Part shown: piece by piece, positions 1-12,125 of the stretch
Position numbering within the stretch: the first letter of the stretch is position 1
How the letters are laid out: each line of letters begins with the position of its first letter
NCBI GenBank assembly: GCA_009928645.1
Contig: SACH01000006.1
Coordinates: 1-64,000, forward strand
Length of the DNA: 64,000 bases
From: Gammaproteobacteria bacterium
Lineage (GTDB): Bacteria; Pseudomonadota; Gammaproteobacteria; Chromatiales; Chromatiaceae
Reading direction: 5' to 3'
The notes under the pieces: generated by a model
Database searches by the model: none
What the model was told of the DNA's origin: nothing
The model's input: the letters and a program-made list of their open reading frames with translations, nothing else
Made by a program: the position numbers and the translations under genes

Positions 1-246
1 CACCTGCCCCACCCCCGCCCCCCGCTCCATCAGGGCCAGGACCTGGCGCACGCGGTCGATGTCAGCCTCCGTATAGAGGCGATGCCCCTTTTCCGTCCGG
101 GTCGGGGTCAGCAGACGGTAGCGGCGCTCCCAGGCCCGCAGGGTGACCGGTGGCACGCCGGTCAGACGGGAAACGGTGCGGATGGGGTAGAGACCGAGCC
201 CCCGCGACCCGCCGTCATCCTCCTCCACGCTGACTAATTCGCTCAT
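1..246 (-). CDS. MerR-family regulator, CarH/LitR-like (N-terminal part, runs off left edge)
   Basis: Reading the minus strand from the ATG at 246 gives 82 residues that remain open at base 1, so only the N-terminal DNA-binding part is present. After a short acidic leader (MSELVSVEEDDGGSRG) comes a typical MerR winged-helix: YPIRTVSRLTGVPPVTLRAW, then ERRYRLL, then KGHRLYTEADIDRV. The RxWERRYxLxxPxRTxKGHRLY pattern is characteristic of the CarH/LitR group, whose C-terminal half binds adenosylcobalamin and senses light. That half is outside the window, so light sensing is inferred. The gene diverges from the lipid-type gene series that starts at 330, and four 11-bp repeats lie in the gap. Alternative: an ordinary MerR repressor of the same operon. 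Confidence 0.85.
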   Translation of the reverse strand, partial: MSELVSVEEDDGGSRGLGLYPIRTVSRLTGVPPVTLRAWERRYRLLTPTRTEKGHRLYTEADIDRVRQVLALMERGAGVGQV

Positions 247-274
247 GCTCGCTTGCCTGACAGTCTTTTTTTTG

Positions 275-318
275 TTATACCACACTTATACAAAATTTGT
301 ACAAAGTCGATACAACGC
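275..318. promoter_or_regulatory. Four tandem 11-bp repeats: probable CarH/LitR operator
   Basis: Four contiguous 11-bp units read TTATACCACAC (275-285), TTATACAAAAT (286-296), TTGTACAAAGT (297-307) and CGATACAACGC (308-318). All share an (A/G)TAC(A/C)A core in the same register. CarH/LitR tetramers are known to bind tandem repeats of about 11 bp with a TACA-type core. The array fills most of the 83-bp gap between the divergent MerR gene and the gene starting at 330. On the plus strand, TTGCCT (253-258) and TTATAC (275-280), 16 bp apart, form a weak promoter-like pair overlapping the first repeat. On the minus strand, TATAAC overlaps the same repeat. Confidence 0.75.
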
Positions 319-329
319 AGGTAACCGCC

Positions 330-1610
330 ATGACCCCGATCCCTTACCTGAACCTACCCTCCTTTGAGCACAGCCTGGTGGCCGAGCGCGCCCGCGAGCG
401 CGTGGAACCGGGCGCCATGTTGGAACTGGAGCTGGACATCCTCTTCGCCGCCAACGGCGTGACCTGCCGCGACAGCCGGGTGATCCGCAAGTCCAATCTG
501 TGGCGGGACTTCTTTCCCGGCCAACTGGAGCGGCAGCTCCTGGGCACGGCGGTGGGGGAGCGGGTCGAGGCGGACTTCGTCCCCGGTGCCCTGACCGAAT
601 ACCAGGAAGGGGAGCGCTTCACCGCCCCCCGCGGTGCCTTCCGCAGCCGCAAGCTGGTCCGCCGCGACCTGGAGCCGCGGCTGGGCCGCTTTTATCCCCG
701 GGGTTTCCTCGCCGGCCAGCGGGGGATCTTCTCGGAGGATCGGCGCCCCCTGCGCGTGACCGGGATGCCGGCGGAGCGCCTGGAGGTCGACAGCCGCCAC
801 CCCCTGGCTGGGGTGCCGGTCCGGCTGGGCATCAGCGTCCTCAGCACCTGGGGCACCGGCGAGGAGCACGGCGGCATCTGTAATGACATCGCCATGCTGG
901 CCACGGGTGAGGGCCCGGGCATGCAGCTTCCCCTGGCCCAAGGGACGAGTGACTTCTGGTACCCCGAGGCCATGGGCCGCCTGGACAACCGTGGCGATGA
1001 GGTCTTCTACGAGCGCACCCGCCTGGTGCACCACCTGGACAGCCATTGCCGGGCCCAGATCGAGGCCCTCCATGGCCAGTTGATCCCCGCCGGCGCCAAG
1101 GTGCTGGACCTGATGTCGAGCTGGGTCTCCCACCTGGATCGTATCACCCCCGCCTGCCAGGTAACGGGGCTGGGGATGAATCGGGAGGAACTGGACGCCA
1201 ATCCGCGCCTGGCGGAGCGGGTGATCCACGACCTCAACCAGAACCCCACCCTGCCCTTCGCCAGGGCCAGCTTCGATGCCGTGGTCTGCACCGCCTCCTT
1301 CGAGTACCTGACCCAACCGCGCCAGATCGTCGCGGAGATCGCCCGGGTGCTGAAGCCCGGTGGTATCTGTATCATCACCTTCTCGGATCGCTGGTTCCCG
1401 ACCAAGGCCGTCCAGGTCTGGACCGAGGTCCACCCCTTCGAACGCCTGGGCTATGTCCTGGCCAGCCTGATGAGCGACGAGCGTCTGGGTGATTTCAACA
1501 CCTACAGCCGTCGCGGCCTGCCGCGGCCCCAGGATGACGCCCGCGCCGGGGAACTGGATCTCTCCGATCCCCTGTTCGCGGTCTGGGCCCGGCGCCGGCC
1601 GGAGCATTGA
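330..1610 (+). CDS. FKBP-like domain fused to SAM-dependent methyltransferase
   Basis: The protein has about 426 residues from the ATG at 330; an upstream in-frame TTG (297) lies inside the repeat array and is unlikely. Residues about 25-130 resemble an FKBP/SlyD-type peptidyl-prolyl isomerase fold (ELDILFAANG, FFPGQLERQLLGTAVGER). The C-terminal 190 residues are a class I methyltransferase of the Methyltransf_11 type: AKVLDLMSSWVSHL (motif I region), SFDAVVCTASFEYLTQP, and VLKPGGICIITFSDRWFP. It is the first gene of the series under the 11-bp repeat array. The substrate is unknown. The fusion is visible in one uninterrupted frame. Whether the FKBP part is catalytic cannot be judged. Confidence 0.75.
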   Translation: MTPIPYLNLPSFEHSLVAERARERVEPGAMLELELDILFAANGVTCRDSRVIRKSNLWRDFFPGQLERQLLGTAVGERVEADFVPGALTEYQEGERFTAPRGAFRSRKLVRRDLEPRLGRFYPRGFLAGQRGIFSEDRRPLRVTGMPAERLEVDSRHPLAGVPVRLGISVLSTWGTGEEHGGICNDIAMLATGEGPGMQLPLAQGTSDFWYPEAMGRLDNRGDEVFYERTRLVHHLDSHCRAQIEALHGQLIPAGAKVLDLMSSWVSHLDRITPACQVTGLGMNREELDANPRLAERVIHDLNQNPTLPFARASFDAVVCTASFEYLTQPRQIVAEIARVLKPGGICIITFSDRWFPTKAVQVWTEVHPFERLGYVLASLMSDERLGDFNTYSRRGLPRPQDDARAGELDLSDPLFAVWARRRPEH

Positions 1611-1722: not shown

Positions 1723-2793
1723 ATGAAGTACTTGTCCGAGTCCGATTACGTCCATGGCCAGGCCCCCGCCACGGGGGTCCTGCTGGCCAACCTCGGCACG
1801 CCGGACGCCCCGGACCGGGCGGCGGTGCGGCGCTATCTCAAGCAGTTCCTCTGGGACCCGCGGGTGGTGGAGACCCCCCGCCCCCTCTGGTGGCTGATCC
1901 TCAACGGCATCATCCTCACCACCCGCCCCCAACGCTCGGCGAAGGCCTATGCCAGCATCTGGGGCGCGGAGGGCTCGCCCTTGCTGAGCATCTCCCGCGC
2001 CCAGCACGCCCGCCTGGCGCAGGCCCTGGGGCCGACGCTGAAAGTGGAACTGGCCATGCGCTACGGCCAACCCTCCATCCCCCAGGCCCTGGCGGCCCTG
2101 CGCCAGGCCGGCGTCCGCCGTATCCTGGTGCTGCCGCTCTACCCCCAATACTCCGGCACCACCACCGCCAGCGTCTTCGACGCCGTGACCCAGGAGATCC
2201 GCGGCTGGCGCTGGATCCCCGAACTGCGCTTCGTCAATCAGTATCACGATGACCCCGCTTTCATCACCGCCCTGGCGGAATCGGTGCGCGCTTATCAGGC
2301 GGAGCATGGCCGACCCCAGCGGCTGGTGATGTCCTTCCACGGCCTGCCCCGGGCCTACTTCGACGCCGGCGACCCCTACTACTGCCAGTGTCAGAAGACC
2401 GCCCGGCTGCTGGCGGAAACGCTGGGGCTCACGGCGGAGGACTATGCCGTGACCTTCCAGAGCCGGCTCGGCGTCAAGGCCTGGCTCCAGCCTTACACCG
2501 ACGAGTACCTGCAAGGGCTGCCCCCGCAAGGCATCCGCCGCGTCCAGGTCATCTGCCCCGGTTTCAGCGCCGACTGCCTGGAGACCCTCGAGGAGGTGGC
2601 CATCGAGAACCGCGACCACTTCCTGGCCAAGGGTGGCGAAGCCTACGACTACATCCCCTGCCTCAACGACAGCGCGGGACATATCGCCTTCCTCCAGGGG
2701 CTGATTCACCGCCACCTTCAGGGCTGGGAACCGGTCCCCTGCGATGGCCCCGCCAGCCTGGCGCGGGCCAAGGCCCTGGGGGCGTCCCGCTAG
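1723..2793 (+). CDS. hemH: Ferrochelatase
   Basis: This 356-residue protein inserts ferrous iron into protoporphyrin IX to give protoheme. Family marks are GVLLANLGTPDAPD near the N-terminus, LPLYPQYSGTTTASVFD at about residue 130, SFHGLPRAYF with the metal-binding histidine, and PGFSADCLETLEEVAIE with the conserved acidic residues. Length is normal for bacterial enzymes. The ATG at 1723 is preceded by GAAGGA (1708-1713). Its place inside a CarH/LitR-type gene series is unusual: in a phototroph, making heme on demand would drain protoporphyrin, a photosensitiser and bacteriochlorophyll precursor. That role is inference. Whether it is the only hemH of the genome is unknown. Confidence 0.95.
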   Translation: MKYLSESDYVHGQAPATGVLLANLGTPDAPDRAAVRRYLKQFLWDPRVVETPRPLWWLILNGIILTTRPQRSAKAYASIWGAEGSPLLSISRAQHARLAQALGPTLKVELAMRYGQPSIPQALAALRQAGVRRILVLPLYPQYSGTTTASVFDAVTQEIRGWRWIPELRFVNQYHDDPAFITALAESVRAYQAEHGRPQRLVMSFHGLPRAYFDAGDPYYCQCQKTARLLAETLGLTAEDYAVTFQSRLGVKAWLQPYTDEYLQGLPPQGIRRVQVICPGFSADCLETLEEVAIENRDHFLAKGGEAYDYIPCLNDSAGHIAFLQGLIHRHLQGWEPVPCDGPASLARAKALGASR

Positions 2794-2898: not shown

Positions 2899-4566
2899 AT
2901 GACCTCTACCGACACCCCTTACACGGTCTCCGACTACCTGGTTCATCGGTTGCAGGACATTGGTATCGGGCATGCCTTCGGGGTGCCCGGGGACTACACC
3001 CTGGACTTCCTTGACCGGCTGGTGCATAGCCCCATCGCCTGGGTCGGCAATTGCAACGAACTCAACGCTGGCTACGCGGCGGACGGCTACGCCCGCCTCC
3101 AGGGGGCCGGTCTGGCGGTGATCACCTACGCCGTGGGCGGCTTCAGCATCCTCAACGCAGTGGCGGGTGCCTACGCCGAGCACGTGCCCCTGGTGGTCAT
3201 CAGCGGGGCCCCGGCCATGACGCGCCGTCAGACCCAGGCCCTGGTGCACCATCTGGCGGGGGACCACGACATGCAGCTCGAGATCTTCCGCAAGCTCACG
3301 GTGGACTGCGCCCTCCTCGCCAGCCCACACACCGCCCCCGACGACATCGACCGGGTGCTCACCAACTGCTTGTCCTGGAAGCGCCCGGTCTACCTGGAAC
3401 TGCCCATGGACGTGGCGCAGATGCCCTGTCGCCACCCCCAGCCCATCAGCTTTCAGATTGAGAAGGTCTCTGACCCCCGGGCCCTGGACGAGTGTCTGGC
3501 AGAGGTGGCAAGACGTTTGGACGAGGCCCACAATCCGGCGGTGCTGGTGGGCACCGAGGTATCCCGCTTCGGCCTAGGGCCGGCGGCCCTGCACCTGATC
3601 GAACGGCTGGAACTGCCCTACGCCATGACCGTCAGTGCCAAGGGTTGTCTGCCGGAACTCCACCCCCAGTGCCTGGGGGTCTACCAGGGGGCCCTGAGCC
3701 GGCCCGAGACCCGCGCCCAGATTGAGGAGTCGGATTGCCTGATCGAACTGGGGGTCTGGTTGACCGACTGGGACACCGGTCTCTATACCTCCCCCCAGGC
3801 GCAACGGGTCTTCGTCCGCGCCAACCTCGACCAGGTCAGGATCGGCTTCCATATCTACCCCGGGGTCCAACTGGAGGACTTCGTCCGCGGCCTGGCGGAC
3901 CAGGCCACGCCACGCCACTTCCGTGACTCCCATCCTATCCGGCCCAATGCCCCGGTCCGCTCTTACCTGCCCGAGGTGAGCCAGCCCCTGAGCGCCGCCC
4001 GCTTTTATCGGCGGGTGGAGGCCTTCCTCGACGACTCCATGATCCTGGTCTCTGACATTGGCGACGTGGTCTGCGCCGTGGCCGACATGCACATCGAGGA
4101 GGCGGATAACTTCCTCACCCAGGCCTATTACATGTCCATTGGCTATGCCACCCCCGCCGCCCTGGGCGTGTCCCTGGCGCGCCCCGACAAACGCCCGGTG
4201 GTCCTGGCCGGCGACGGTGCCTTCCAGATGACCGCCCAGGAGGTGTCCACCCTCCTGCGCCAGGGCTGCCGGCCCATCCTCTTCCTGGTCAACAATGACG
4301 GCTACCTGATCGAGCGCTACCTGCATGAGGACCAGGTCTACAACGACCTCCAGCCCTGGAAATACGCCGAGTTGCCCCATGTCTTCGGTGACGGGGCGCT
4401 AACCTTCCGCGTCACCACCGAAGGCGAACTGGAGCATGCCCTGGCCGCAGCCCTCGCCGCGCCGGACAGCCTGGTCTTTATCGAGGCCTGTGTCGGACGT
4501 GACGCCTCCGATGCCCTCAAGCGCATCGGCGCCACCTACCAGAAGAGCTATCGCAAGGGGAGCTGA
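2899..4566 (+). CDS. Thiamine-diphosphate 2-oxoacid decarboxylase (pyruvate/indolepyruvate decarboxylase family)
   Basis: The 555-residue protein has the three-domain layout of pyruvate and indolepyruvate decarboxylases. The N-terminal TPP pyrimidine-binding domain carries the catalytic glutamate in NCNELNAGYAADGYAR (about residue 54) and the adjacent histidine pair in ALVHHLAGDH, typical of decarboxylases rather than acetolactate synthases. The C-terminal domain has the Mg-TPP motif from LAGDGAFQMTAQE to NNDGYLIE (about residues 435-470). The expected reaction is non-oxidative decarboxylation of a 2-oxoacid to an aldehyde. The substrate (pyruvate, indolepyruvate or a branched-chain oxoacid) cannot be told from sequence. 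It lies 105 bp after hemH in the same direction. A link to lipid modification, such as supplying an aldehyde, is speculative. Confidence 0.9.
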   Translation: MTSTDTPYTVSDYLVHRLQDIGIGHAFGVPGDYTLDFLDRLVHSPIAWVGNCNELNAGYAADGYARLQGAGLAVITYAVGGFSILNAVAGAYAEHVPLVVISGAPAMTRRQTQALVHHLAGDHDMQLEIFRKLTVDCALLASPHTAPDDIDRVLTNCLSWKRPVYLELPMDVAQMPCRHPQPISFQIEKVSDPRALDECLAEVARRLDEAHNPAVLVGTEVSRFGLGPAALHLIERLELPYAMTVSAKGCLPELHPQCLGVYQGALSRPETRAQIEESDCLIELGVWLTDWDTGLYTSPQAQRVFVRANLDQVRIGFHIYPGVQLEDFVRGLADQATPRHFRDSHPIRPNAPVRSYLPEVSQPLSAARFYRRVEAFLDDSMILVSDIGDVVCAVADMHIEEADNFLTQAYYMSIGYATPAALGVSLARPDKRPVVLAGDGAFQMTAQEVSTLLRQGCRPILFLVNNDGYLIERYLHEDQVYNDLQPWKYAELPHVFGDGALTFRVTTEGELEHALAAALAAPDSLVFIEACVGRDASDALKRIGATYQKSYRKGS

Positions 4567-4753: not shown

Positions 4754-5809
4754 ATGATCTCCCTTGAACGCCTCGCCATTGACTGGGTCGAACAGGGCCG
4801 GGTGCCGGATGCGCTGGTGCGCCAGGGTATCCGCCAGCTCTGCCGGCGGCGTCTGGACCTCATCGCCGCCGCCGACTGCGAGGCGGTGGCCGCCGCCCGT
4901 CAGGCCTTCGTTGCCGAGATGCTCGCGGGCCCCGTCGCCCCGGTGCCGGACCAGGCCAACGCCCAGCACTACGAGGTCCCCGCCGCCTTCTTCGCCGCGG
5001 TCCTGGGGCCACGGCGTAAGTACAGTTGCTGCCACTTCCCCCCCGGCGTGGACGATCTGGCCGCCGCGGAGGACGCCGCCCTGGCCCTGACCTGCCTGCG
5101 GGCCGGCATCGCCGATGGCCAGGACATCCTGGAGCTGGGCTGCGGCTGGGGCAGCCTGACCCTGTGGCTGGCGGAGCATTACCCGGCCGCCCGCATCACC
5201 GCCGTCTCCAACTCCCACTCCCAGCGCCAGCACATCGCGGCCCGGGCCGCCGAGCATAACCTGACCAACCTGCGCCTCATCACCGCCGACATGAACGACT
5301 TCACCACCCCGGAGCGCTTCGACCGGGTGGTCTCGGTGGAGATGTTCGAGCACATGCGCAACTGGGGCCAGCTCTTCCAGCGCGTCGCCGGCTGGCTCAA
5401 GCCGGAGGGGCGCTTCTTCATGCACGTCTTTTGTCACCGCGACCGACCCTACGCCTTCGAGGACCAGGGCGAGGACGACTGGATGAGCCGTCATTTCTTC
5501 ACCGGCGGCATCATGCCCAGCGACGACCTGCCCCTACGCTTCCAGGACCATCTGCGCCTCGTCGACCAGTGGCGCTGGTCCGGTCGCCACTACGAGCGTA
5601 CCGCCAATGCCTGGCTGGCCAATCTGGACGCCCGGAAGGAGGATCTACTGCCCGTCCTCGCCGACTGCTATGGGGCGGACCAGGCCGGCCTCTGGTTCCA
5701 GCGTTGGCGGCTGTTCTTCCTCGCCGTCGCCGAGACCTTCGGCTTTGACGAGGGCCAGACCTGGTGGGTGAGTCACTATCTGTTCGAGCGGCGGGAGGGG
5801 TTAGAGTGA
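4754..5809 (+). CDS. Cyclopropane-fatty-acid-synthase-like SAM methyltransferase
   Basis: Starting at ATG 4754 (AGGGG about 10 bp upstream) the protein has 351 residues. A much earlier in-frame start at 4436 would overlap the preceding gene and is not credible. It has the CFA-synthase-like core: AQHYEVPAAFFAAVLGP, RRKYSCCHFP, then SAM motif I ILELGCGWGSLTLWLAEHYP and VVSVEMFEHMRNW. It is shorter than true CFA synthases and distinct from the second family member at 10048. It probably transfers a methyl group from SAM to an acyl chain or another lipid. Its stop overlaps the next start (GTGA), indicating translational coupling with the DUF2878 protein. Substrate unknown. Confidence 0.8.
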   Translation: MISLERLAIDWVEQGRVPDALVRQGIRQLCRRRLDLIAAADCEAVAAARQAFVAEMLAGPVAPVPDQANAQHYEVPAAFFAAVLGPRRKYSCCHFPPGVDDLAAAEDAALALTCLRAGIADGQDILELGCGWGSLTLWLAEHYPAARITAVSNSHSQRQHIAARAAEHNLTNLRLITADMNDFTTPERFDRVVSVEMFEHMRNWGQLFQRVAGWLKPEGRFFMHVFCHRDRPYAFEDQGEDDWMSRHFFTGGIMPSDDLPLRFQDHLRLVDQWRWSGRHYERTANAWLANLDARKEDLLPVLADCYGADQAGLWFQRWRLFFLAVAETFGFDEGQTWWVSHYLFERREGLE

Positions 5810-6528
5810 CGGCGCGGGCCGCCAGTAATCCCGTCGTACCGGGCTCGGGCTCGACCCGGGGACTGATCCTCAATCTGTCCCTGTTCCAGCTTGGCTGGTG
5901 GGCCCTGGTGCTCAGCGCCGCCCAGGGTCGGCCCCTGATCGGCCTGGTGATCGTCGCCCTGATCCTGGCCTGGCACCTGGGCTTTGTCCGCCCCCTGGCC
6001 AGCGAGGCCCTGCTCATCGGCCTGGCGACCCTCATCGGCCTGGCCTTCGATAGCTTCCTCATCACCACCGGCTGGGTCAGTTTTGGTCCGCCTTCCCTGG
6101 TTGTGGTTCAGACAGCAACCCTGGCCTCGGCGCCCGCGGTTGAGGTAGCCACTAGCCTGGCGGCACCAGCCACGGCGCCGGTGGTCGCCCTGGCCACCAG
6201 TCCGGAACTGGCCCGCGCCAACATCGCGACCACCAGCACCGGCACCTCACTGGTCGCTGCCCTGCCACCTGCGTGGATGCTTGCCCTCTGGGCCAATTTC
6301 GCCACCACCCTCAACCTGTCCCTGGCGGGCCTCCAGACCCGGCCCTGGCTCGCCGCCCTACTTGGTCTGATCGGCGGGCCCCTGGCCTACTGGGGTGGTG
6401 CCAGTCTGGGCGCCATGACCTTCGTCGCCCCCCTCCCCGCCCTCACCACCCTCGCCCTAGGCTGGGCCCTGCTCACCCCGCTGCTCCTGGCCCTGGCCGC
6501 CACCCTTGCCCGGAGGTCGAACCCCTGA
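5806..6528 (+). CDS. DUF2878 membrane protein with a central Ala/Ser/Thr-rich insertion
   Basis: Starting with GTG 5806, overlapping the previous stop and after GGGAGGGG (5793-5800), the protein has 240 residues. It matches DUF2878 at both ends: NLSLFQLGWWALVLSAAQ and FDSFLITTGW on one side, then PPAWMLALWANFATTLN and LGLIGGPLAYWGGASLGA on the other. Several hydrophobic helices are evident. Between FGPP and LPPAWM (residues about 98-152) lies a roughly 55-residue low-complexity stretch rich in A, T, S and V, absent from the usual compact family of about 170 residues. The function of DUF2878 is not known. Its regular company is CFA synthase, DUF1365 and lipocalin genes. Confidence 0.8.
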   Translation: MTARAASNPVVPGSGSTRGLILNLSLFQLGWWALVLSAAQGRPLIGLVIVALILAWHLGFVRPLASEALLIGLATLIGLAFDSFLITTGWVSFGPPSLVVVQTATLASAPAVEVATSLAAPATAPVVALATSPELARANIATTSTGTSLVAALPPAWMLALWANFATTLNLSLAGLQTRPWLAALLGLIGGPLAYWGGASLGAMTFVAPLPALTTLALGWALLTPLLLALAATLARRSNP

Positions 6529-7307
6529 TGGACGCCTTTTCCTGGGAGACCAGCTTCCTCGCCCTGGCCCTGCTGGGGGTCGCCGCCGTGTTGACCTGGC
6601 TGGCGAGCATCCCGCTGCGCAACGTCAGCATCGTCGACAGCCTCTGGGGGGTAATGATCGCCCTCGCCGCCTGGGTCTACGCCCTGGCCACCCCCCAGAC
6701 CGGCCCCCGCGAGGGCCTGGTCCTGGTCCTGGTCAGCCTGTGGATGCTGCGCCTCTCCGGTTATATCACCCGGCGCAACCACGGGCACGGGGAGGATCGC
6801 CGCTATCAGGCCATCCGCGCCCGCAACCAGCCCCACTTCACCTTCAAGAGCCTCTACCTGGTCTTTGGCCTCCAGGCGGTCCTGGCCTGGATCATTGCCT
6901 GGCCCCTGATGGCGGCCATGGCCGGACCAGAGCCCCTGGGCTGGCTCGATGCCCTCGGCGTCGCCCTCTGGCTGTTCGGCATCGGCTTCGAGGCCGGCGC
7001 CGACCAGCAACTCGCCCGCTTCAAGGCCGATCCGGCCAACGCCGGCCGGGTCATGGACCAGGGGTTGTGGCGCTACAGCCGCCACCCCAACTACTTCGGG
7101 GAGTTCTGCGTCTGGTGGGGCGTCTGGCTCCTGGCCCTGGCCGCCGGTGGCGCCTGGACCCTGATCTCCCCCCTGCTCATGAGCTTCCTGTTGCTCAAGG
7201 TCTCCGGTGTCGCCCTGCTGGAGCAGGACATCGGCGAGCGTCGCCCCGCCTATCGCGACTACATCGCCCGCACCAGCGCCTTCTTCCCCTGGCCACCCAA
7301 AGACTAA
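6528..7307 (+). CDS. DUF1295 membrane protein (steroid 5-alpha-reductase-like)
   Basis: ATG 6528 overlaps the upstream TGA, with CGGAGG at 6511-6516, giving 259 residues. The sequence has several transmembrane helices, RNVSIVDSLWG near the N-terminus, and the family hallmark LWRYSRHPNYFGEF at about residue 180, ending in YIARTSAFFPW. DUF1295 belongs with steroid 5-alpha reductases and isoprenylcysteine methyltransferase-like membrane enzymes, some of which reduce a double bond next to a carbonyl. The actual substrate here is unknown. A lipid or acyl chain is the likeliest given the neighbours. Confidence 0.85.
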   Translation: MDAFSWETSFLALALLGVAAVLTWLASIPLRNVSIVDSLWGVMIALAAWVYALATPQTGPREGLVLVLVSLWMLRLSGYITRRNHGHGEDRRYQAIRARNQPHFTFKSLYLVFGLQAVLAWIIAWPLMAAMAGPEPLGWLDALGVALWLFGIGFEAGADQQLARFKADPANAGRVMDQGLWRYSRHPNYFGEFCVWWGVWLLALAAGGAWTLISPLLMSFLLLKVSGVALLEQDIGERRPAYRDYIARTSAFFPWPPKD

Positions 7308-7329
7308 TCGGATTAGGAAGAACATCCCG

Positions 7330-7863
7330 ATGAAACGCCTTCTATGCCTCCTCAGCTTCGGCCTGCTCGCCGGCTGCCAGTCCGCCGCCCTGCCGCCCCT
7401 GACCACCGTGCCCCAGGTCGATCTCAAGCGCTTCATGGGCGACTGGTATGTCATCGCCCACATCCCCACTTGGCCGGAACGTAACGCCTGGAATGCCATC
7501 GAGTCCTACGCCCTGAACCCCGATGGCACCATCGCCACCACCTTCACCTTCCGCGAGGGGGGTTTCGAGGGTGAGCTGAAGACCATGACCCCCACCGGTT
7601 TCGTCACCGACACCGAGAGCAACGCCATCTGGGGCATGCAGTTTCTCTGGCCCTTCAAGGCCGATTTTCGCATCAGTTACCTGACCCCGGACTATGGCCT
7701 CACCGTCATCTCCCGCGAGCGGCGCGACTATGTCTGGGTCATGGCGCGTACTCCCGAGATCCCGGAAACCGAGCGCCAGGCGGTGGAGGAACACCTGAAG
7801 GCCAGCGGCTATGACCTGGCTGAACTGCGTTACGTGCCCCAGCGCTGGGAGGCGAATCCGTGA
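7330..7863 (+). CDS. Lipocalin-family lipoprotein (Blc-like), first copy
   Basis: This 177-residue protein starts with a lipoprotein signal peptide (MKRLLCLLSFGLLAGC, lipobox LLAGC, Cys at residue 16). The lipocalin motif GDWYVIAHI follows at about residue 37, and the C-terminal YVWVMARTPEIPE motif is typical of Blc/apolipoprotein-D-like outer-membrane lipocalins, which bind fatty acids or lysophospholipids. A second lipocalin lies at 11562 in the same series and shares only the family motifs. The stop codon overlaps the GTG of the following FAD enzyme, so the two are translationally coupled. It probably acts in the envelope to carry the lipid product or a damaged lipid; that is inference. 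Confidence 0.88.
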   Translation: MKRLLCLLSFGLLAGCQSAALPPLTTVPQVDLKRFMGDWYVIAHIPTWPERNAWNAIESYALNPDGTIATTFTFREGGFEGELKTMTPTGFVTDTESNAIWGMQFLWPFKADFRISYLTPDYGLTVISRERRDYVWVMARTPEIPETERQAVEEHLKASGYDLAELRYVPQRWEANP

Positions 7864-9185
7864 ACATCGCCATCGTCGGCAGCGGTATCGCCGGTCTGGG
7901 CGCCGCCCATCACTTACATCGTGAAGGGCACGCAATCACCCTCTTTGAGGCCGGCGACCACGTCGGCGGCCACGTCAACACCCACCCGATCAGCCTGGGC
8001 GGGAACGACTACGCCGTGGACTCCGGCTTCATCGTCTTCAATGACTGGACCTATCCCAACTTCATCGCCCTGCTGGACGAAGTGGGGGCGGAGAGTCAGG
8101 CCAGCGACATGAGCTTCAGCGTCTCCTGCGGCCGCACCGGCCTGGAGTACAACGGCGCCACTTTCAACAGCCTCTTCGCCCAGCGCGCCAACCTGGTCAA
8201 CCCCCGCTTCTGGGGCATGCTGTGGGACATCCTGCGCTTCAATCGCGAGGCCCCCAAGCTGCTGGCGGAAGAAGGTAACGAAGTCAGCCTCGGCGACTTC
8301 CTCACCGCCGGGGGCTATGGTCAGCTCTTCCGTGACTATTACATCCTGCCCATGGGCGCCGCCATCTGGTCCACCGATGCGGAGCGGATGCTCGGCTTTC
8401 CGGCGCGCTTCTTCGTCCGCTTCTTCCTCAATCACGGCCTGCTGGCCGTCAAGGACCGCCCCGTCTGGCGGGTGATCAAGGGCGGGTCCCGGGCCTATGT
8501 GGACAAGCTCATCGCCCCCTTCCGCGACCGGGTGCGATTGAACTGCCCGGTGACGCGGATCGAGCGCCGGGACGAAGGGGTGAGCCTGCACAGTGCGACG
8601 GGCGGACGGGAGGACTTCGACGCCGTCTTCCTTGCCTGCCACAGCGACCAGGCCCTGGCCCTGCTGGCGGACCCCAGCCCGGCGGAGACCCAGGTCCTGG
8701 GCGCCATCCCCTACCATCTCAACGAGGCGGTGCTGCACACCGACACCCGCCTGCTGCCGCGGCAACCCCTGGCCTGGGCCTCCTGGAATTACCTTATGCC
8801 CGAAGGCCCCGGCGGTCGCCTGGCCCTGACCTACGACATGACCCATCTTCAGAGCCTGGACGCCCCGGAGACCCTCTGCGTCACCCTCAATGCCAGCGAG
8901 CGCATCGACCCGGCCAGGGTGCTGGCCCGCGTGACCTACCATCACCCCCTCTTCACCCTGGAGGGCGCCGCGGCCCAGACTCGCCAGCGGGAGATCAACG
9001 GCCCCCGCCGCACCTATTATTGCGGCGCCTACTGGCGCAATGGCTTCCACGAGGACGGCCTGGTCAGCGCCCTGGAGGCCCTGGGCCATTTCCGCGCCGA
9101 TTTCGGCCTGCCGCGGGGACCCAGCCCATTGACAAATGCCAGCAGACAAGACCCCTCCGGGGACCCGCAACCGGTGGCGCGCTGA
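7860..9185 (+). CDS. FAD-dependent oxidoreductase, amine-oxidase/desaturase-like
   Basis: The GTG at 7860 overlaps the preceding stop. The 441-residue protein opens with an FAD-binding fold: MNIAIVGSGIAGLGAAHHLH, then FEAGDHVGGHVNT. Downstream GGSRAYVDKL and the C-terminal YYCGAYWRNGFHEDGLVSAL complete the family pattern of flavoproteins grouped with amine oxidases, phytoene desaturases and the COG2907 family. This type is regularly adjacent to DUF1365 and CFA synthase, as here. In Rhodobacter sphaeroides a comparable photooxidative-stress locus makes methylated and furan fatty acids. By analogy this enzyme may oxidise or desaturate a modified acyl chain. Exact reaction not shown. Confidence 0.85.
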   Translation: MNIAIVGSGIAGLGAAHHLHREGHAITLFEAGDHVGGHVNTHPISLGGNDYAVDSGFIVFNDWTYPNFIALLDEVGAESQASDMSFSVSCGRTGLEYNGATFNSLFAQRANLVNPRFWGMLWDILRFNREAPKLLAEEGNEVSLGDFLTAGGYGQLFRDYYILPMGAAIWSTDAERMLGFPARFFVRFFLNHGLLAVKDRPVWRVIKGGSRAYVDKLIAPFRDRVRLNCPVTRIERRDEGVSLHSATGGREDFDAVFLACHSDQALALLADPSPAETQVLGAIPYHLNEAVLHTDTRLLPRQPLAWASWNYLMPEGPGGRLALTYDMTHLQSLDAPETLCVTLNASERIDPARVLARVTYHHPLFTLEGAAAQTRQREINGPRRTYYCGAYWRNGFHEDGLVSALEALGHFRADFGLPRGPSPLTNASRQDPSGDPQPVAR

Positions 9186-9230
9186 AGACCGCAGACCGCA
9201 GCGCGTAAGGCGAAGATCGAAGAGAGCGAC

Positions 9231-10043
9231 ATGGAGCCGATAACCCCCCCGTCTGACCAGCCCCTGCACAGCTGCCTTTACGAAGGCTGGCTGCGGCACC
9301 GCCGTTACACCCCCAAACGGCACGAATTCCGTTATCCCCTCTTCATGCTCTGGCTGGACCTGGGCGAACTGGACCGGGTCTTCGCCGGGCGCTGGTTCTG
9401 GTCCACCCGCCGCCCCAACCTGGTCTGGTTCCGCCGCGCCGACTATGGCGGCGACCCGACCCTGCCCCTGGACGAGGCCATGCGCCGCCTCGTGGCGGAG
9501 AAGACCGGCTGGCGTCCGCTGGGGCCGGTGCGGATGCTCACCAATCCCCGCTACTTCGGCTATTGCTTCAACTCCATCAGCCTCTATTACTGTTACAGCA
9601 CGGACGGCCAGACCCTGGAGGCGGTGGTCGGCGAGGTGACTAATACCCCCTGGGGCGAGCGCATCCACTATGTCCTGCCCCTGGAGGCCAACCTGGGGCG
9701 CCCCGAGAAGCCCCGGTTCCGCTTCCCCAAGGCCCTGCACGTCTCGCCCTTCCTGCCCATGGACATGGAGTACCACTGGCGCCTGAACCTGCCCGGCGAG
9801 CGCTTGACCGTGCACATGGACGACCTGCGCGGCGGCGAGAACATCCTCGACGCCACCCTGGTCCTGGAGCGGCGGGAGATCGACGGCCCCAGCCTGGCCC
9901 GGGTCCTGTGGCGCTACCCGGCCATGACCCTCCAGGTCATCTTCAACATTCACTGGCAGGCCCTCAAGCTCTGGCTCAAGGGCGTGCCCTTTATCGACCA
10001 CCCGCCCCCCGACCCCCCGAAGGAGGCGCCTGGCCAGGCGTAA
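9231..10043 (+). CDS. DUF1365 family protein
   Basis: The 270-residue soluble protein carries the DUF1365 signature: [35 protein letters not shown], then [18 protein letters not shown] and [19 protein letters not shown]. The family has no established biochemical activity but is nearly always found between an FAD oxidoreductase and a CFA synthase. That trio is complete here (7860-11496). It probably acts on, or helps form, the modified fatty acid. It ends 4 bp before the CFA synthase start, consistent with one transcript. Confidence 0.88.
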
Positions 10044-10047
10044 GCCC

Positions 10048-11496
10048 ATGAGTGACGAGACCCTCACCGCCACCCTGCCCCTGAACCTGGCCGCCCCAAG
10101 GTGGGCCAGGCCCCTGCACACGCTGGCCCGTCGGCTGGTGCTCGCCAAGCTCGCCCGCCTGGGTACCGGCGTGGCGCTGGGGGCCGCGCCAGCTCATCAT
10201 CCAGATGCCCCCATGGGTGCCGAGCCTGGTGCCGGCACGGGTAGCGATCAGACTGTTAGCCAGCTCCCCGTTGCCGTGATCACCGGATCGCACCCAGATC
10301 GGCCCGTCGTCAGCGCCAGCGCCGGCGCCGTTGCCGTTGGTAGCGGACGCTTGCTGGTCCGGGAGGGCGACCGCCACTGGTGCTTCGGCCAGGGCGAGCC
10401 CCTCGTCGAGGTGGAGGTCCGGGACCCGGCCTTCTGGCCGGCCATGGCCTTCGGCGGTACCGTCGGCGCCGGGGAGGCCTTCATGGACGGCCACTGGGAG
10501 TGCGAGGATCTCACCGGCCTGGTCCAGTTGCTGCTGCGCAACCGCCCGGCACTCATGGACATGGAGGAGGGCCTGGCCCGCCTCTCCGCCCCCCTGCGGG
10601 CCCTGCTGCACCGCGCCCGGGACAACCATCGCCGCGGCAGCCGCCGCAACATCGCCGCCCACTACGATTTGGGCAACGACTTCTATCGCCTCTGGCTGGA
10701 CGAGACCCTGATGTACTCCAGCGCCCTCTTCACCCGCCCGGACATGAGCCTGGCCGAGGCCTCCACCGCCAAGCTGGAGCTTATCTGCCGCAAGCTGGAC
10801 CTGCGGCCGGGCGACCAGGTCCTGGAGATTGGTACCGGTTGGGGCGGCTTCGCCCTCTATGCCGCCAGTCGTTATGGTTGCCGGGTCACCAGCCTGACCC
10901 TGTCGCGGGAGCAGGCCGAGCTGGCGCGCCAGCGCGCCGCCGCCGCCGGTCTGGCGGACCGGGTGGAGGTCCAGTTACGCGATTACCGCGACCAGCGGGG
11001 CCAGTACGACAAGTTGGTGTCCATCGAGATGATCGAGGCGGTCGGCGCCCGCCACCTGGAGACCTACTTCCGCCAGTGCGGGCGCCTGCTCAAGCCGACC
11101 GGGGCCATGCTGCTCCAGGCCATCACCATCGCCGACCAGCGCTACCAGGCCGCCCTCAAGGAGGTGGATTTCATCCAGAAGCACATCTTCCCCGGCGGCT
11201 TCCTGCCCAGCGTCACCGCCATGGCCAGCGCCATGACCCGGGCCTGCGACCTCAAGATCGTCCACCTGGAGGACATCGGCCCCCACTACGCCGAGACCCT
11301 GGCCCGCTGGCGGGACAACTTCGTCCGGCGTCTGGACGCCGTGCGCGCCCTGGGCTTCGACGAGCGCTTCATTCGCATGTGGCGCTTCTATCTCAGCTAC
11401 TGCGAGGGCGGCTTCCGCGAGCGTGACCTGGGCACGGTACAGATGCTCCTGGCCAAGCCCGGCTGGCGCGGTGCTCTGCCCCTGGGTGCCTGGTAG
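10048..11496 (+). CDS. Cyclopropane-fatty-acyl-phospholipid synthase family methyltransferase with N-terminal insertion
   Basis: The protein is 482 residues long. From residue about 105 it is a full CFA-synthase-type enzyme: AHYDLGNDFYRLWLDETLMY, VLEIGTGWGGFALYAASRYG (SAM motif I), VSIEMIEAVG, IQKHIFPGGFLPS and MWRFYLSYCEGGFRER. Such enzymes use SAM to methylate or cyclopropanate the double bond of membrane acyl chains. Residues about 40-98 form a low-complexity G/A/P/V-rich stretch interrupting the usual N-terminal domain, similar in character to the insertion in the DUF2878 protein. The enzyme may make cyclopropane, branched methyl or furan-precursor chains. Which one cannot be told from sequence. 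Confidence 0.88.
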   Translation: MSDETLTATLPLNLAAPRWARPLHTLARRLVLAKLARLGTGVALGAAPAHHPDAPMGAEPGAGTGSDQTVSQLPVAVITGSHPDRPVVSASAGAVAVGSGRLLVREGDRHWCFGQGEPLVEVEVRDPAFWPAMAFGGTVGAGEAFMDGHWECEDLTGLVQLLLRNRPALMDMEEGLARLSAPLRALLHRARDNHRRGSRRNIAAHYDLGNDFYRLWLDETLMYSSALFTRPDMSLAEASTAKLELICRKLDLRPGDQVLEIGTGWGGFALYAASRYGCRVTSLTLSREQAELARQRAAAAGLADRVEVQLRDYRDQRGQYDKLVSIEMIEAVGARHLETYFRQCGRLLKPTGAMLLQAITIADQRYQAALKEVDFIQKHIFPGGFLPSVTAMASAMTRACDLKIVHLEDIGPHYAETLARWRDNFVRRLDAVRALGFDERFIRMWRFYLSYCEGGFRERDLGTVQMLLAKPGWRGALPLGAW

Positions 11497-11561
11497 GCCT
11501 CGTCCCTGCTTGGATGACCCCGCAGCGACCTCCCGCAATGACGCTCAGGACCCCACCCCCC

Positions 11562-12125
11562 ATGAACCATCGCCGCCATTCAGCCGCCGCCCTCCTCACC
11601 CTGCTCCTGCTCGCGCTTACCCTCCCGCTGCTGGGCGGTTGTACTGGCGTGCCTGAGGGCATCCAGCCGGTATCGGGCTTCAAGGTGGATCGCTATCTCG
11701 GCACCTGGCACGAGATCGCCCGTTTGGACCATTCCTTCGAGCGCGGTCTGGAGCAGGTCTCCGCCCACTATGAGCCGCGGGCGGACGGCGGCATCAGCGT
11801 CCTGAATCGCGGGTTCGACCCCGTCAAGGGGCAATGGAAGGAGGCCGAGGGTCGCGCCTATTTCATCAGCGAGCCCGACATCGCCAGCCTCAAGGTCAGC
11901 TTCTTCGGTCCCTTTTATGGCGGCTACCACGTCTTTGCCCTGGACCCGGACTACCGCTGGGTGATGATCTCTGGCCCCAGCCGGGACTATTTGTGGATCC
12001 TGGCGCGAGAACCGCAATTGCCCTCCCCGCTGCTGGAGGAGTTGATCGCGCGGGCGCGAGAGGCCGGTTTCTCCACCGAAACCCTCATCTTTCCCCCACC
12101 CAGTGCGCCCCCAGCGACGTCCTAG
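11562..12125 (+). CDS. Lipocalin-family lipoprotein (Blc-like), second copy
   Basis: ATG 11562 gives 187 residues with a lipoprotein signal (HSAALLTLLLLALTLPLLGG then Cys, lipobox LLGGC). In-frame ATGs at 11514 and 11538 would add a polar, proline-rich leader and are less likely. The lipocalin motif YLGTWHEIARLDHSFERGLE and the C-terminal DYLWILAREPQLPSP motif identify the Blc family. It is clearly a paralog of the lipocalin at 7330 but diverged. It follows the CFA synthase by 65 bp. Two separate lipocalins in one series suggest two ligands or two transport steps; this is inference. Confidence 0.87.
   Translation: MNHRRHSAAALLTLLLLALTLPLLGGCTGVPEGIQPVSGFKVDRYLGTWHEIARLDHSFERGLEQVSAHYEPRADGGISVLNRGFDPVKGQWKEAEGRAYFISEPDIASLKVSFFGPFYGGYHVFALDPDYRWVMISGPSRDYLWILAREPQLPSPLLEELIARAREAGFSTETLIFPPPSAPPATS

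What the first reader, a model, noticed from the sequence alone, without database searches (positions are those of the whole stretch)
275..318. Four perfect-register 11-bp repeats as a light-switch operator
Four abutting 11-bp units with a common TAC(A/C)A core lie exactly between the regulator and its target series. Tandem 11-bp repeats are the known binding mode of CarH tetramers, so a site can be read directly here. The fourth unit suggests one subunit per repeat, one more than in some described operators.
Basis: partly seen in the sequence, partly recalled or inferred. Interest (0 to 1): 0.75.

Follow-up and report, generated by a model that had tools for sequence, protein, structure and literature searches.

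The report
CarH light-switch operator, four repeats
In a purple sulfur bacterium, four back-to-back 11-base repeats form what is very probably the DNA landing site of a vitamin-B12 light sensor (CarH) that keeps photo-damage protection and repair genes off in the dark; operators of this kind, including four-repeat ones, are already known from other bacteria.

Summary
Four abutting 11-bp units at 275-318 (272-315 in the published CarH register) form a dr-DR-DR-dr array. It is the best period-11 array in the window and the only such site in the genome. Three congeners have it in the same divergent position, with all 16 motif positions invariant. The regulator is cut after 82 residues by the start of its contig. 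The probable missing half lies on another contig of the same genome (C414): a B12-binding domain with Wx9EH, ExHxxG and GxxxP, followed by a photolyase, as in the congeners. This supports a class I (AdoCbl-dependent) CarH/LitR operator between carH-phrB and a photo-stress gene series. Both inferred divergent promoters place their -10 in the first repeat, so dark occupancy could shut both directions. The novelty claim fails: four-repeat operators are published for Bacillus megaterium CarH, and Haliangium ochraceum has the same two-perfect plus two-degenerate design. One subunit per repeat cannot be settled from sequence. No binding, B12 or light data exist here. Verdict: new member of a known kind, with a less usual target set headed by a methyltransferase and ferrochelatase.

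The parts
272..315 (+). Operator: four tandem 11-bp repeats in the published register nAnnTnnACAn (dr1 272-282, DR2 283-293, DR3 294-304, dr4 305-315); the finding's 275-318 is the same array shifted by 3
1..246 (-). N-terminal 82 residues of the carH/litR regulator (MerR DNA-binding domain with RAWERRY helix); the gene runs off the contig start
   Evidence: window = contig C316 from base 1; remainder probably on contig C414
274..303 (-). Inferred promoter of carH: TGTACA (298-303), 18 nt, TATAAC (274-279)
   Evidence: sequence reading; the consensus scan with its stricter rules found none
253..281 (+). Inferred promoter of the target series: TTGCCT (253-258), 17 nt, TATACC (276-281) with TG in front (extended -10)
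   Evidence: sequence reading and conservation in congeners; scan found none
330..1610 (+). First target gene: class I SAM-dependent methyltransferase, start codon conserved in congeners
1723..2793 (+). Ferrochelatase (hemH)
2899..4566 (+). Thiamine-pyrophosphate enzyme (three TPP enzyme domains)
4841..5809 (+). Cyclopropane-fatty-acid-synthase-like methyltransferase
5764..12125 (+). Rest of the series: DUF2878, DUF1295, lipocalin, flavin amine oxidase, DUF1365, second Cfa-like enzyme, second lipocalin; membership of one transcript not shown

Best explanation
The array is the operator of a class I CarH/LitR photoreceptor-repressor. Inferred mechanism: in the dark, AdoCbl-loaded CarH binds the four tandem repeats. 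Dr1 carries the inferred -10 hexamers of both divergent promoters and the other repeats cover the start of the target transcript and the -35 of carH, so binding blocks both carH-phrB and the methyltransferase-hemH-TPP-Cfa series. Light breaks the Co-C bond, CarH falls apart and leaves the DNA, and both sets are expressed: photolyase, membrane-lipid and haem functions against photo-oxidative damage, plus more CarH. Shown: the array, its conservation, the DNA-binding domain, a B12-binding/photosensing domain with phrB on another contig of the same genome, and the gene order in congeners. Inferred: that the two contigs hold one gene, the promoters, repression, and light and B12 dependence.
For: Array real and unique. 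It matches the published CarH repeat nnnnTnnACAn / nAnnTnnACAn (PMC9304148; PMC8156234). Three congeners carry one array each at the same place between carH and the methyltransferase; motif positions 5, 8, 9 and 10 are invariant in all four units in all four genomes, and the array has 32/44 invariant positions against 13/42 in the adjoining 230-271 stretch. The genome's only B12-binding_2 matches are a 1291-aa ORF (C11) and the 5'-open ORF at the end of C414, which carries GxxW, Wx9EH, ExHxxG and GxxxP and is followed by a photolyase gene. Congeners have carH-phrB divergent from the methyltransferase and hemH (all three) and TPP-Cfa (L008, L010; L009 ends within hemH) at 76-93% protein identity. 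A congener CarH matches T. thermophilus CarH structures at E about 1e-30. The genome has photosynthetic reaction-centre genes and a cob(I)alamin adenosyltransferase family gene.
Against: No binding, light or transcription data. The C414-C316 join is inferred; no overlap between contig ends was found, and the C414 frame has 101 residues before DPWP against a 36-53 residue linker in congeners. The third B12 motif element reads SxS instead of SxT/V. The Thermus His132 and Arg176 equivalents are Pro and His (alignment, residue numbers from my own knowledge of the Thermus structure). No promoter passed the consensus scan.
Confidence: 0.87

Rival explanations
1. The array is the operator of a B12-independent CarA-like or class II-V LitR regulator: same DNA-binding domain and repeats, but the signal comes from another protein (LOV photoreceptor, antirepressor) or another cue.
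For: The window itself holds only the DNA-binding domain. Class II LitR of Pseudomonas works through a LOV protein (PMC9758184). Some gammaproteobacterial relatives have lost the sensing motifs but keep repeats (Ectothiorhodospira L019-L021).
Against: The B12-binding half with intact Wx9EH and ExHxxG is found in the same genome and in all three congeners. The class II consensus T(G/A)TACA-N12-TGTA(C/T)A is absent from 201-360.
Confidence: 0.08
2. The regulator binds the array to activate from a MerR-type promoter rather than to repress.
For: MerR DNA-binding domain; a 19-nt spacing can be read on the minus strand (TTGTAC, 19 nt, TATAAC) from the sequence.
Against: Tandem direct repeats instead of one palindrome between -35 and -10; characterised CarH/LitR relatives are repressors; the 18-nt reading with TGTACA fits the -35 better.
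Confidence: 0.04
3. The repeats are a by-product of AT-rich promoter sequence or of chance.
For: The spacer is AT-rich (41% G+C against 66% in the window).
Against: Shuffles of the same spacer do not reach the motif score in 5000 trials; every motif position is conserved in three congeners; one site per genome in the genus with no control hit.
Confidence: 0.01

Closest known systems
CarH operator of Haliangium ochraceum (PcrtHo; PMC9304148)
   Same: Four tandem 11-bp repeats, two perfect (DR) and two degenerate (dr), overlapping -35 and -10 elements; [quoted passage not shown]
   Different: Controls carotenoid genes; myxobacterium; the order of DR and dr was not compared here
CarH/LitR operators of Bacillus megaterium (CarHBm)
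   Same: Four tandem repeats, or three DR plus one dr, overlapping -35 or -10; AdoCbl tetramer in the dark (as reported in PMC9304148; primary paper not held)
   Different: Here only two units are perfect; different target genes and phylum
CarH operator of Thermus thermophilus
   Same: Same 11-bp unit and homologous regulator (E about 1e-30 for the congener protein)
   Different: Three repeats instead of four; the target here is a photo-stress series
Vibrio cholerae MerR-phr and Pseudomonas class II LitR light regulons (PMC5241685, PMC9758184)
   Same: CarH/LitR-type regulator linked to photolyase; light-induced lipid-modifying enzymes
   Different: PMC9758184 places Vibrio LitRs in class IV and Pseudomonas LitRs in class II, neither a class I B12 sensor; Pseudomonas sites are TGTACA-N12-TGTACA
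Divergent crtI-carH operator of Sorangium cellulosum (PcrtSc1; PMC9304148)
   Same: One CarH site between divergent genes with overlapping proposed promoters
   Different: One DR and two drs; carotenoid genes

Membership tests
CarH operator | Tandem 11-bp direct repeats nnnnTnnACAn, with degenerate flanking units allowed | tested here: met
   dr-DR-DR-dr at 272-315; published consensus
CarH operator | Overlaps -35 and/or -10 of the target promoter | tested here: inconclusive
   Inferred -10s lie in dr1, but the consensus scan found no promoter and no start site is mapped
CarH operator | Bound by regulator in the dark with AdoCbl, released by light | not testable with these tools
   needs EMSA/footprint
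Class I CarH/LitR photoreceptor | N-terminal MerR domain with RxWERRY recognition helix | tested here: met
   RAWERRY in window 1-246 minus strand
Class I CarH/LitR photoreceptor | Four-helix-bundle domain with intact Wx9EH | tested here: met
   WPQGEASIAREH on C414 and in L008, L009; the join of C414 to the window gene is inferred
Class I CarH/LitR photoreceptor | B12 motif, strict form D/ExHx2G/Px41SxT/Vx22-27GG | tested here: not met
   The strict pattern fails (SxS in place of SxT/V); a relaxed pattern with ExHx2G (lower-ligand His), SxX and GG matches on C414 and in all three congeners. So I file the operator as CarH-type and the regulator as CarH/LitR-like, with class I as the likely but unproven class
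Class I CarH/LitR photoreceptor | GxxW, EH, GxxH, GxxxP light-response signature (PMC11796333) | tested here: met
   all four in the C414 ORF
Class I CarH/LitR photoreceptor | AdoCbl-dependent tetramer (or paired dimers) | not testable with these tools
   In the alignment the Thermus Gly160 equivalent is Ala and the Gly192 equivalent is Gly; not decisive
Class II LitR site | T(G/A)TACA-N12-TGTA(C/T)A | tested here: not met
   absent from 201-360 on both strands

The most novel reading that the evidence does not exclude
A B12 light sensor in an anoxygenic phototroph controls ferrochelatase and a methyltransferase/TPP-enzyme series rather than carotenoid genes, through a four-repeat site whose outer, degenerate repeat serves as the -10 of both divergent promoters, so one tetramer with one subunit per repeat shuts both directions.
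Probability: 0.3. Interest if true: 0.45.

Novelty: new member of a known kind. Interest (0 to 1): 0.3.

Why it matters
It extends the CarH operator model to purple sulfur bacteria and to a target series headed by a methyltransferase and ferrochelatase, and gives a compact divergent site with two perfect and two degenerate repeats, conserved over four genomes, on which CarH stoichiometry could be tested. It does not change the known mechanism.

Tried and rejected
Regulator without a sensing domain: rejected as the likely reading, because the window only holds 82 residues for lack of contig and a B12-binding half with phrB lies on C414. Overlap joining C414 and C316: none found from 9 to 150 bases. 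Class II LitR site: absent. Other sites in the genome: none; the one further 3-mismatch hit (C448) is no better than the control count of two. Four-unit arrays across the wider family occur in many genomes, and the reversed control pattern also hits often; outside the genus they were not followed. A structure prediction was not run, since solved CarH structures match at E about 1e-30 and a model would not settle stoichiometry.

Full report
What is there. The 83-bp spacer between the regulator start (246, minus strand) and the methyltransferase start (330, plus strand) holds four abutting 11-bp units at 275-318. The array scores 14 of 16 for TnnACA in tandem; no other place in the window reaches 12 except the same array shifted by one unit. 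Period-11 self-similarity is the highest in the window. Shuffled spacers reach the motif score in 0 of 5000 trials and the self-similarity in 4 of 5000. In the published register the array is 272-315: TTGTTATACCA, CACTTATACAA, AATTTGTACAA, AGTCGATACAA. The inner two fit nAnnTnnACAn fully; the outer two each miss the TnnACA core at one position (ACC in unit 1, G for T in unit 4) and also lack the A at position 2. The flanking 11-mers do not fit.

Conservation. Three genomes of the same genus (L008 Candidatus Thiosymbion, L009, L010) each have exactly one such four-unit site with no control hit, in the same place. In the alignment of the four spacers, motif positions 5, 8, 9 and 10 are invariant in all four units, including the two off-consensus letters; the array has 32 of 44 invariant positions against 13 of 42 in the adjoining stretch 230-271. 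With only four related sequences this contrast is suggestive, not a formal test.

The regulator. The window is the first 64 kb of contig C316, so the gene is cut after 82 residues; those residues are a MerR domain with the RAWERRY helix. The genome has two B12-binding_2 matches. One is in a 1291-aa ORF, probably MetH by its length. The other is a 5'-open ORF at the end of C414, oriented to continue the window gene and followed by a photolyase gene. Its sensing part and phrB align to the carH-phrB pairs of the congeners at 73-91% identity. It has GxxW, Wx9EH, ExHxxG and GxxxP; the SxT/V element reads SxS. I infer one carH gene split by an assembly gap. The join is not shown, and the residues before DPWP (101) are more numerous than the congener linkers (36-53).

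The targets. Downstream on the plus strand are a methyltransferase, ferrochelatase, a TPP enzyme, a Cfa-like enzyme, DUF2878, DUF1295, lipocalin, amine oxidase, DUF1365, a second Cfa-like enzyme and a second lipocalin. The first five are kept in order in L008 and L010. How far one transcript runs is unknown.

Mechanism. Published CarH binds such repeats as an AdoCbl-loaded oligomer in the dark and leaves in light. By eye, an extended -10 (TGT TATACC) with TTGCCT 17 nt upstream reads towards the methyltransferase, and TGTACA-18-TATAAC reads towards carH, so dr1 would carry both -10 hexamers. The stricter consensus scan found no promoter, so this is inference. The genome encodes reaction-centre proteins, an SQS_PSY family enzyme and a cob(I)alamin adenosyltransferase family protein, which fits a phototroph able to make AdoCbl.

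Known or new. Four-repeat operators are described for B. megaterium CarH, and H. ochraceum has four repeats of which two are perfect and two degenerate. Whether each repeat holds one subunit cannot be read from sequence: Thermus CarH uses three of four DNA-binding domains on three repeats, and Cystobacter CarH uses two dimers.

Noticed in passing
L019, L020, L021 (Ectothiorhodospira), upstream of the regulator at locus position 6001: CarH-like regulators that lack Wx9EH and ExHxxG but keep three perfect tandem TnnACA repeats in the promoter region and phrB downstream: a sensor that may have lost B12 while its operator stayed.
   Followed up: partly
L013 and L014: Two further gammaproteobacterial homologues (Cocleimonas MAG, Arhodomonas) lack Wx9EH and ExHxxG and show no significant repeat array upstream.
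   Followed up: partly
L040 (G000 contig C414) 13594-14556, minus strand: The C-terminal carH part has 101 residues before the conserved DPWP, about twice the congener linkers; the extra stretch may be connected with the assembly break here.
   Followed up: no
window 7324-7863 and 11514-12125: Two lipocalin-like proteins in the same series, each next to lipid-modifying genes.
   Followed up: no
window 297-329: The listed methyltransferase ORF begins at a TTG inside the operator; the ATG at 330 is conserved in congeners and is the likelier start.
   Followed up: yes
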